Positions 14,836-39,832 of a stretch of DNA of 64,000 nt are shown here, one piece after another. The DNA lies in contig NC_073354.2 of assembly GCF_027580225.2 (NCBI RefSeq), positions 8,284,001-8,348,000 of the forward strand, written 5' to 3'. Position numbers and translations under genes: made by a program. Numbering within the stretch: the stretch's first letter is position 1; every line of letters starts with the position of its first letter. This DNA comes from Misgurnus anguillicaudatus (taxonomy: Eukaryota > Chordata > Actinopteri > Cypriniformes > Cobitidae). Under the pieces are notes generated by a model. The model ran no database searches. It was not told the DNA's origin and saw only the letters and a list, made by a program, of their open reading frames with translations.

Positions 14836-15064
14836 TGTACTATTAAAAATGATTAATTACTATGAATAATAATTACTATTAATTATTAATAAAAATAAAG
14901 GTCTATTGGTTTATGGACCTGAAACAAAAAAAAAGTTTTAGCAACTTATCTGGTGTTAGAAAAATCACAGGTTCAATTCCTAAAGATGAAAATACACTTT
15001 AAACATTTAAATTTTTAGTCATTTCAATTTGAGATTTTTTAAAATCTTTTCTAGTGATGAGTTG

Positions 15065-15770
15065 TCATACTTAATTCTAGTCCGAATTTCAGTCTGATAC
15101 CGCTCCATTGGGCTATGATTATGAGGCGTGTCTCAACCAGGACAAAAAATTCCTCTGCACTCAATTGGATAGACCTACAACCAATCAGAGCATCCGAGTG
15201 TGTGACGTATGTTGAAATGGCGTCTCTCCTCTTTTGCAACCTGACCTGAACTGCAAGTTATTTCGCAACGAGACTAACCTTATGATTGTACGAAGTCTGA
15301 TTTGGCGAACGTATATCGACAGCTACTATGTTTACAACATTTCATTCACATCACAACATTGTGCGTTATTTACTACGTCATACAGCCAGACTATCTCTTA
15401 CCATTTGTAAGTTAGATGAACTTCATCCACGGGCTTCTGAGCTGACAACCATCGATAGTTATATCAATATTGTTGTGCGCACCGAGCCAGCTGATAAATG
15501 AAACTTTTGCCGAATCCCGTAGGAGGGACGGCAAAAACATCTTTCCTATCAACAAATGCCTTGATCGCGTTCTCTGTTCCTCTTTTAAAATCAATGCGCT
15601 GTTGATATCTTCTAGAACAGCCGTCTTTGTTGTAAACCGATTCAACACAATTTGATTGGTCCGAACAGTTTTTGTTCGAGCATAGTAGCGCCGCAAGGGA
15701 GCGACTCCAGACCGAACTTCCCGTCCTGAAATGTTGTGGGCGGGGCTAAGTTCGGATGGAACCCAGGCTA
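15065..15770 (-). mobile_element. RecQ-fragment element, copy 1
   Basis: Flanked by an 11-bp direct repeat GTGATGAGTTG (15054-15064, 15771-15781), extendable to 14 bp with CTA on the left. The right end reads TTCGGATGGAACCCAGGCTA. The left end is diverged, but TTCTAGTCCGAATTT pairs with the inner part of the right end. It carries a helicase fragment and shares the CCAGGCTA end with 38529-39050. Confidence 0.6.
15468..15655 (-). pseudogene. RecQ-like helicase fragment with Walker A
   Basis: Read on the minus strand, one frame gives LILKEEQR then HLLIG. After a one-base frame change the neighbouring frame gives DVFAVPPTGFGKSFIYQLA. The EEQR segment corresponds to RecQ motif 0 (its glutamine contacts adenine), and PTGFGKS (15503-15523) is the Walker A loop that binds ATP phosphates. 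Only the start of helicase domain 1 remains; there is no DEAH motif and no second domain, and the frame is broken. An intact form would be a 3'-5' DNA helicase; this copy cannot be active. It lies inside a mobile element, so it is probably element cargo rather than a host gene. Confidence 0.7.
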
Positions 15771-37565: not shown

Positions 37566-38528
37566 CAATGACGGAAGCAAAAGAACGCTGGTTATTGAGG
37601 GTTTCATATTTCTTTATATTCACACATCTTTTAATATGAGTGAGTTTGTATTTGTTTAATTGTTGTTTGGTTTTTACAAAAATAGTAAAGGGGGAAATTC
37701 AGGTTTTTATTACTGTAACAACGTATGTATGTCACTTTTATATTATATGGATTATTTATTTCGTTAATGATGAATAATGTTTATTCTCATTAAGGTCTTA
37801 AGTTGAAGATTAAAATGAGTTTATTGGTCTGTGACAAAATGTCCTCACCTGCACATTTAAACATGACATTTAAAGATGTTTCACTATTTAAAAGCTGCAC
37901 AAACTTTTATTTAAAGCTTAAAAATATCAAAAAGATTATATTAGTTAAACTCTGTAGTAGTGTGTGGCTTTTGTACTTTTAAAAGTACATTTCTACATGT
38001 AAATGCCCTAATTTAGTGCCTTATTTAGCTTTAATAAGTGAAAAATCTAATTGAGTAAATATTTATGTTTTTATTCGATTAGTCAATTATTCGCAAAGTA
38101 ATCGCCGATTAATCGATTACAAAAATAGTCGCTAGTTGCAGACCCAAGACCGACCCAACCCAACTGCATTTTCTTTGAAACACTTAAGTAAAGGGCTACA
38201 ACCCCTCCCACGAGGGGAAAAAATCTGGGTCACATTTTCGCCGCTTGCGACGGTTAAACCATAGATGAATGTACATTTAGGAGGATCTCTTGATAGAATT
38301 GCAAAATGCATAAAATACATAACTATGTTTTCAGTGTGTAAAGAGCTTACATAATAAACATATGTTTTATTATCTTAGAATGAGACATTTTTATACACCC
38401 CAGGTCCCCCTTACGTGGAAGTCACCATCATGTTTCTATAGCCTTAAACAGACAAACTGTTCTACAGAGCCCGTTTTGTCACTGCATTATCTCAGACCAT
38501 GACGTTTTTGTCTTATGGCGGCTACCGT

Positions 38529-39050
38529 TAGCCTGGCTCCGCCCTCCTCTGTGCTTCCGCTTAATTTTCATTTCACTTCAGTACTACGTCTGGGACTGTT
38601 GTGTAGAATTTTGTTTTCTCCTGCAAAAATCTGCAGGTCCAATCAGCGAACAGAGGGGGGTGGCTAAGAACGATGACGTTGAAGTCATGCGTCAGTTTGA
38701 GTTTTAGTTCTGTAATGGCAGCGGAGAAAGACGTGAGAAAAGCTATTCGGTCCGTTGTTGCAAAACTGCCGAATATACCGAAGTTAAAGCCGGAGCAAGA
38801 ACAATGTTTGCTACGTTTTGTTGGTCTGATCATTCGGACTTGTTATTTTCGGCCGGTTTCAGCCCATGATATACGTCACGACCACACGTTAGCGATTGGC
38901 TGGAAGATTCTGAGTGACTCTGGGCAGATCCAATAGTTTAAAACTTCAACAGAGGACCCTCCTTAACGGAAGTAACGCTTTGCAATGGAGCGTGGCCAGA
39001 CTCTCTGTACAAATGAAATGAATGTACAAGAGTTTGGTTGGACCAGGCTA
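38529..39050 (+). mobile_element. RecQ-fragment element, copy 2
   Basis: Ends TAGCCTGGCTCC and inverted TAGCCTGGTCCAACC. The flanks are identical 9-bp copies GGCTACCGT (38520-38528, 39051-39059). The 522-bp interior includes a RecQ-like helicase N-terminal fragment. The 9-bp duplication excludes hAT (8), Tc1 (2) and TTAA groups; a Mutator-like or less common superfamily is possible. Confidence 0.75.
38715..38936 (+). pseudogene. N-terminal fragment of a RecQ-like helicase
   Basis: From ATG 38715 the frame reads MAAEKDVRKAIRSVVAKLP then LKPEQEQCLLRFVG, which aligns with the motif-0 region (LKEEQR, HLLIG) of the fragment at 15468-15655. After FVG, where a helicase would continue GKDVFAV and Walker A, the sequence becomes unrelated and stops at 38936. 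The fragment therefore looks like the 5' end of an element gene with the rest deleted, as in non-autonomous derivatives. The link to RecQ is by comparison with the other copy; alone it would be weak. Confidence 0.5.
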
Positions 39051-39832
39051 GGCTACCGTAGCTTTACTATGCATTTAAAAACCGTTGGTTGCAATTCACA
39101 GTCTTACCATAAGATGCCGCTAAAACTTCCTGATTGCATCTTGAAGATCTCAAGCTGCAGCAAAAGTTGTTTTTCGCAGAAGTATAAATAAAATCTGACA
39201 TGTGGCCTACGGCATTGGTCCGACGCAGACGTATAAATCACACATAAGCGGTATCGATGTGTGCACAGCCTGCAGCCTGGCATGTGCCACACAGATCCAG
39301 ACTGACCATCAGGAGCACCAGGAGGAATCCCGGTGGCCTGGCAACCCCCTTGCTTTCTGCTCTGTTTATTTTCATTTATTTATTTATTATAACTTTATAT
39401 TATTTCCTGCCCTATGCTGATCCACACGAGTGATTTGGGTCATGCAGTGGAAAGTGTTTCATGATGAATGCATGATTCTCTGTGTGTGAGGTTACACACA
39501 TGTGCTTTCCAAAAATGCACTTCACATGATGGCATGAGTACACACTAAAGATTTTGAGTTGGTTTCTGTTTATGTAGTGCTGAAATGTCAATCCCTCATT
39601 AGTACAACTTCATTACAACCTATAACTTTCGGAGAAATTTTGAAAATATTTCTTATTTTCCTGATTATAATTCAGGTCCCAGGTTCACTACTCTTAGCCA
39701 ACAGTGGAGGCCACAAATATCAGCCTGAGGCATTCGTCAAAGTTTAAGACCCAAACCTGCTCGGGTCTTGGGTCATACCTTGGGTTTTTAGATCCAAGTA
39801 GACCTGTATAGACCTTTACTATAAAGTATATC

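What the first reader, a model, noticed from the sequence alone, without database searches (positions are those of the whole stretch)
38520..39059. Mobile element carrying a RecQ-like helicase N-terminus, with 9-bp target duplication
The element 38529-39050 has inverted TAGCCTGG(C/T) ends, perfect 9-bp flanking copies (GGCTACCGT) and an internal frame from ATG 38715 whose LKPEQEQCLLRFVG part aligns with the helicase motif-0 region of the element near 15500. A 9-bp duplication does not fit hAT, Tc1 or TTAA groups. A family of DNA elements whose autonomous member encodes a RecQ-type helicase would be unusual. The duplication and ends are seen directly; the family concept is inference.
Basis: partly seen in the sequence, partly recalled or inferred. 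Interest (0 to 1): 0.75.

Follow-up and report, generated by a model that had tools for sequence, protein, structure and literature searches.

The report
Shrunken copy of helicase-carrying jumping gene
This is a shrunken copy of a fish jumping gene whose long relatives carry both a DNA-unwinding enzyme and a probable cutting enzyme; the kind seems to be an already known one (AcademH), so the find is real but fairly ordinary.

Summary
In detail: 38529-39050 has inverted TAGCCTGG ends and perfect 9-bp flanks (GGCTACCGT). It belongs to a large family in the window's own genome (40 of 1167 candidates scored, all near full length). Of 37 loci examined, 32 show both ends; the flanking repeat is perfect in 22 of 32 and fits only the 9-bp register (94% of bases; 22-33% at other lengths).

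I found its long relative. A 9186-bp element (C18:31829-41014) has the same ends and a perfect 9-bp duplication. It encodes a RecQ-type helicase and, convergently, a DUF6589 protein. The window copy is an internal-deletion derivative: 1-297 is the 5' end (with helicase codons 1-37), 298-322 junction DNA, 323-522 the 3' end. The frame from 38715 is a remnant.

A second lineage (C2, 8428 bp, perfect 9-bp duplication) has the same two genes. A DUF6589 relative is predicted to fold like DDE transposases.

Added here: a family, its complete relative, and the DUF6589-transposase link.

The parts
38520..38528 (.). left copy of the 9-bp target-site duplication GGCTACCGT
38529..39050 (+). non-autonomous (internally deleted) AcademH-type transposon, 522 bp
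38529..38536 (+). left terminal inverted repeat TAGCCTGG
38529..38825 (+). 297 bp homologous to the 5' end of the 9186-bp C18 element (85.9% identity; family consensus 89.9%)
38715..38825 (+). remnant of the first 37 codons of the RecQ-type helicase gene (MAAEKD...LKPEQEQCLLRFVG), upstream of Walker A
   Evidence: 70% identity over 37 aa, E 1.7e-12
38826..38850 (+). 25-bp junction of the internal deletion, not aligned to either end of the C18 element
38851..39050 (+). 200 bp homologous to the 3' end of the C18 element (87% over 31 bp, 94% over 172 columns)
39043..39050 (-). right terminal inverted repeat (TAGCCTGG on the minus strand)
39051..39059 (.). right copy of the 9-bp target-site duplication GGCTACCGT
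15063..15770 (-). second helicase-stub element, of another subfamily of the same kind, apparently lacking the outermost bases of its far end; flanked by GTGATGAGT(TG)
15485..15661 (-). helicase remnant including the Walker A stretch PPTGFGKS
   Evidence: 41% over 59 columns, E 8e-8
15401..15430 (-). short helicase motif II remnant VDEVHLTYKW
   Evidence: 9 of 10 identical, E 0.072 on its own

Best explanation
The feature is a miniature, internally deleted copy of an AcademH-type DNA transposon. The long relative encodes (a) a DUF6589 protein that is most likely an RNase-H-fold DDE transposase, with a Cys-rich, zinc-finger-like N-terminus, and (b), on the opposite strand and converging on it, a RecQ-type helicase in at least two exons. 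The transposase is thought to recognise the TAGCCTGG ends and to cut and join DNA with a 9-bp stagger, so that gap filling leaves 9-bp duplications; the helicase is thought to unwind or process the ends or to help repair. The short copies keep both ends and are moved in trans. Shown: the ends, the 9-bp register, derivation from the two ends of the long element, and both genes inside two complete elements with perfect 9-bp duplications. Inferred: that DUF6589 is the catalyst, what the helicase does, the exon structure, and movement in trans.
Confidence: 0.9

Rival explanations
1. A Mutator-like (MULE) element, which also makes 9-bp duplications, that captured a fragment of a helicase gene.
For: Duplication length fits; the window copy alone shows only a helicase fragment.
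Against: The complete relative with the same ends encodes both helicase domains and DUF6589, and no MULE transposase domain was reported in the six open frames scanned. The same gene pair recurs on C2 and C9.
Confidence: 0.02
2. A transposon of a superfamily other than Academ that independently carries a RecQ helicase: AcademH-like in anatomy but not related to it.
For: Relationship of DUF6589 to Academ transposases was not tested here. KolobokH shows that RecQ helicases were picked up by another superfamily (passage of PMC9587614).
Against: Helicase plus 9-10 bp duplication is what is reported for AcademH. Kolobok itself inserts at TTAA (recalled), which is not seen here.
Confidence: 0.08
3. 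A chance open frame in an unrelated short repeat.
For: The frame alone has no Pfam or PDB match.
Against: 37 codons are 70% identical to the helicase N-terminus at the same place relative to the element's end.
Confidence: 0.01

Closest known systems
AcademH lineage of Academ DNA transposons (Kojima, Mob DNA 2020; citation seen in reference lists, paper not held)
   Same: Helicase-encoding DNA transposon, 9-10 bp target-site duplications; animals and fungi according to its title.
   Different: This family and its TAGCCTGG ends were not compared with named Repbase families; relatedness of DUF6589 to the Academ transposase is untested.
KolobokH
   Same: Transposase plus RecQ helicase (passage).
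   Different: [quoted passage not shown] Kolobok duplicates TTAA (recalled), here 9 bp of varied sequence and the helicase on the other strand.
Mutator-like elements
   Same: 9-bp duplications.
   Different: No MULE transposase found in the frames scanned; DUF6589 and RecQ instead.
P element and hAT (Hermes) transposases
   Same: Nearest solved folds to the DUF6589 relative.
   Different: 8-bp duplications (recalled); the DUF6589 profile has no sequence match among PDB chains.

Membership tests
AcademH | autonomous-type member encodes a helicase | tested here: met
   RecQ-type helicase inside the complete C18 and C2 elements; activity not tested
AcademH | 9 or 10 bp target-site duplications | tested here: met
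   32 short copies with both ends, 22 perfect at 9 bp; both complete elements perfect at 9 bp; criterion
AcademH | Academ-superfamily DDE transposase | tested here: inconclusive
   DUF6589 partner gene; a DUF6589 relative folds like DDE transposases, but no Academ reference sequence was available for comparison
AcademH | phylogenetic placement with named AcademH families | not tested
   no named sequences held
Mutator-like (MULE) | MULE transposase domain in the long element | tested here: not met
   six open frames of L051 scanned with Pfam: only DEAD, Helicase_C and DUF6589 pass their cut-offs; the short exons were not scanned
Kolobok (KolobokH) | TTAA target duplication (recalled) | tested here: not met
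   9-bp duplications of varied sequence
Helitron | no target-site duplication and no terminal inverted repeats (recalled) | tested here: not met
   inverted ends and 9-bp duplications
hAT / P element | 8-bp duplication (recalled) | tested here: not met
   8-bp register matches 76 of 256 bases, 9-bp register 272 of 288

The most novel reading that the evidence does not exclude
DUF6589, which Pfam lists as a family of unknown function, is a widespread RNase-H-fold DDE transposase family, and in one branch it works with a RecQ helicase as a convergent two-gene cassette in which the helicase is part of the transposition machinery (for example in end unwinding or in setting the 9-bp stagger).
Probability: 0.35. 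Interest if true: 0.5.

Novelty: new member of a known kind. Interest (0 to 1): 0.3.

Why it matters
It gives a well-anchored pair of long and short forms of a helicase-carrying transposon in a vertebrate: long elements with both genes and precise ends, and many short copies with clean 9-bp duplications. That makes the question of what a RecQ helicase does in such a transposon testable in a fish. It also ties Pfam's DUF6589 to a transposase-like fold, which would help annotators avoid naming such frames as host genes.

Tried and rejected
Rejected: chance frame, MULE with captured gene, KolobokH, Helitron, hAT and P (see rivals and membership rows).

Led nowhere: Pfam and PDB searches with the 87-aa window frame. 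Pfam searches with three of the four partner-gene frames gave nothing above a cut-off. AlphaFold of the amphioxus homologue P0002 with 16 sequences was unusable. A profile search of PDB sequences with that alignment gave nothing. Foldseek alone gave no significant PDB match. The far end of the C9 element was not found in the 4 kb fetched. The genome count of the 15.1-15.8 kb subfamily was never obtained: the request got no answer five times. The AcademH source paper is not held. Paper searches for DUF6589 returned no paper. A first count of catalytic positions was one residue off for the glutamate of P0043; one search repeats it at the right residue.

Full report
OBSERVATION. The interval 38529-39050 begins TAGCCTGG, ends CCAGGCTA, and is flanked on both sides by GGCTACCGT. 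In the window this is the only perfect 8-bp inverted end plus perfect 9-bp flank within 12 kb; 30 simulated windows gave two such pairs in all, and the number of 8-mers is within what chance allows (3 seen, 0.97 expected, 8 of 100 shuffles reach 3). The window alone makes the structure likely, not certain.

THE FAMILY. The window lies in a genome of 1.12 Gb (G000). A DNA search returned 40 scored matches out of 1167 first-look candidates; all 40 cover at least 517 of 522 bases at 92-100% identity. The copy number is therefore probably large, but the tool gives only a lower bound. I examined 37 distinct loci (18; three further loci repeat a place already counted and were dropped). In 32 the alignment reaches both ends; in five it reaches one. 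The 9-bp flank is perfect in 22 of 32, with one mismatch in 6, two in 3 and four in 1. Only the 9-bp register matches (272 of 288 bases; 22-33% at lengths 6, 7, 8, 10, 11 and 12). Thirty of the 32 copies have lengths of 505-530 bp and differ from their consensus by 2.1-4.8%, the window copy by 4.2%. The target sequences are varied; G is common at position 1 (15 of 32) and A/T in the middle, a weak preference at most. The loci were chosen as best matches, so the proportion of perfect flanks is that of well-kept copies.

THE LONG RELATIVE. A RecQ profile search of the genome (52 match rows, 45 of 481 candidates scored) returned host-like helicase exons, several transposon-like helicases (C2, C9, C18, C5) and many N-terminal fragments. 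Next to the transposon-like helicase on C18 lies a terminus TAGCCTGGCTCCGCCC, the same as the window element's. Reading the locus outwards gave a complete element, C18:31829-41014, 9186 bp on the minus strand, with GGTAGGCTC immediately outside both ends. The first 297 bp of the window element align to its 5' end (85.9%), 31 bp (87%) plus 172 columns (94%) align to its 3' end, and the 25 bp in between are not aligned; with the family consensus the figures are 89.9, 93.5 and 97.7%. The window element is thus an internal-deletion derivative of such an element. In the consensus the frame stops at a different place than in the window copy, so the short copies are not expected to make a useful protein.

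GENES OF THE LONG ELEMENT. The helicase has DEAD (4.3e-16) and Helicase_C (9.9e-19) domains in two open frames. Both match the RecQ family profile (4.9e-19, 3.8e-26), each below that model's whole-protein cut-off. The second frame has RecQ as its best PDB sequence match. The motifs GFGKS, DEVH and QQVGRAGR are present. On the other strand, converging on it, a gene of several exons matches DUF6589 (1.9e-21). Its pieces match residues 10-987 of a 992-residue amphioxus homologue, except 306-368 and short gaps. Exon borders were judged by eye and no transcript was seen. An N-terminal Cys pattern is present; the only profile hint is a sub-threshold zf-AD match in one of two homologues scanned (E 0.085).

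RECURRENCE. The genome has six DUF6589 matches (8 of 8 candidates scored). Three, on C2, C9 and C18, lie 1.2-2.4 kb from a transposon-type RecQ and converge on it. The C2 pair lies in a complete 8428-bp element, C2:12577510-12585937, with GTCAGTGGT outside both ends. The far end of the C9 element was not found. The other three DUF6589 matches showed no helicase within their 1.5-kb flanks, which is shorter than the spacing of the C9 and C18 pairs; two of the three are of a different DUF6589 lineage. Of six loci with short helicase stubs (L035, L040, L043, L048, L049, L050), four show both ends, all four with perfect 9-bp flanks: C13 GGTTTCAGC, C1 CAGAGGCTT, C16 ACTAATGCG, C23 CCAAATACA; in L040 and L049 the second end was not recognised.

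WHAT IS KNOWN. A passage of PMC10045372 states that within the Academ superfamily AcademH makes 9 or 10 bp duplications while AcademX makes 3 or 4, and links this to the helicase and nuclease they encode. The primary paper (Kojima 2020, whose title says AcademH is found in animals and fungi) is not held; I know it from reference lists only. Passages of PMC10799480 describe AcademH helicases in fungi. Passages of PMC9587614 describe KolobokH with a RecQ helicase. Passages of PMC4746887 list Academ in zebrafish, medaka and stickleback. A search of the held library for DUF6589 returned no paper.

VERDICT. The concept already has a name. The element belongs to a non-autonomous AcademH-type family, with a complete long relative identified here; I count it as a new member of a known kind, without having been able to check whether Repbase already lists this very family. 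Membership is supported on helicase and duplication length; the transposase relationship to Academ remains to be compared.

HOST. A protein row for Misgurnus anguillicaudatus gives a contig length (37107445) equal to that of G000:C9. The host is therefore probably this loach (Cobitidae, order Cypriniformes).

Noticed in passing
window 15063-15770 (minus strand): A second helicase-stub element of a different AcademH-type subfamily (related to L035, L043, L049), apparently missing the outermost bases of one end; flanked by GTGATGAGT(TG). Its genome copy number could not be obtained.
   Followed up: partly
L026:3441-3535 (C9:8774888-8774982): A 95-bp element with both termini of the second subfamily and perfect 9-bp flanks TAATACACC, lying between the helicase and DUF6589 genes of the C9 element: close to a minimal mobile unit.
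   Followed up: no
L077 (C18:35143567-35144616) and L078 (C15:6215963-6216403): A distinct DUF6589 lineage with no helicase match within 1.5 kb; its relatives include fish, a coral and many unnamed proteins, and one of them (P0043) is predicted to fold like DDE transposases.
   Followed up: partly
C20:39253949-39671184: Four copies of the short element with nearly equal scores within about 0.4 Mb, suggesting segmental duplication rather than separate insertions.
   Followed up: no
P0017 (protein search): A protein named B-cell CLL/lymphoma 7 family member A in Fundulus diaphanus matches the DUF6589 partner protein (E 3e-73), probably a gene model fused with a transposon.
   Followed up: no
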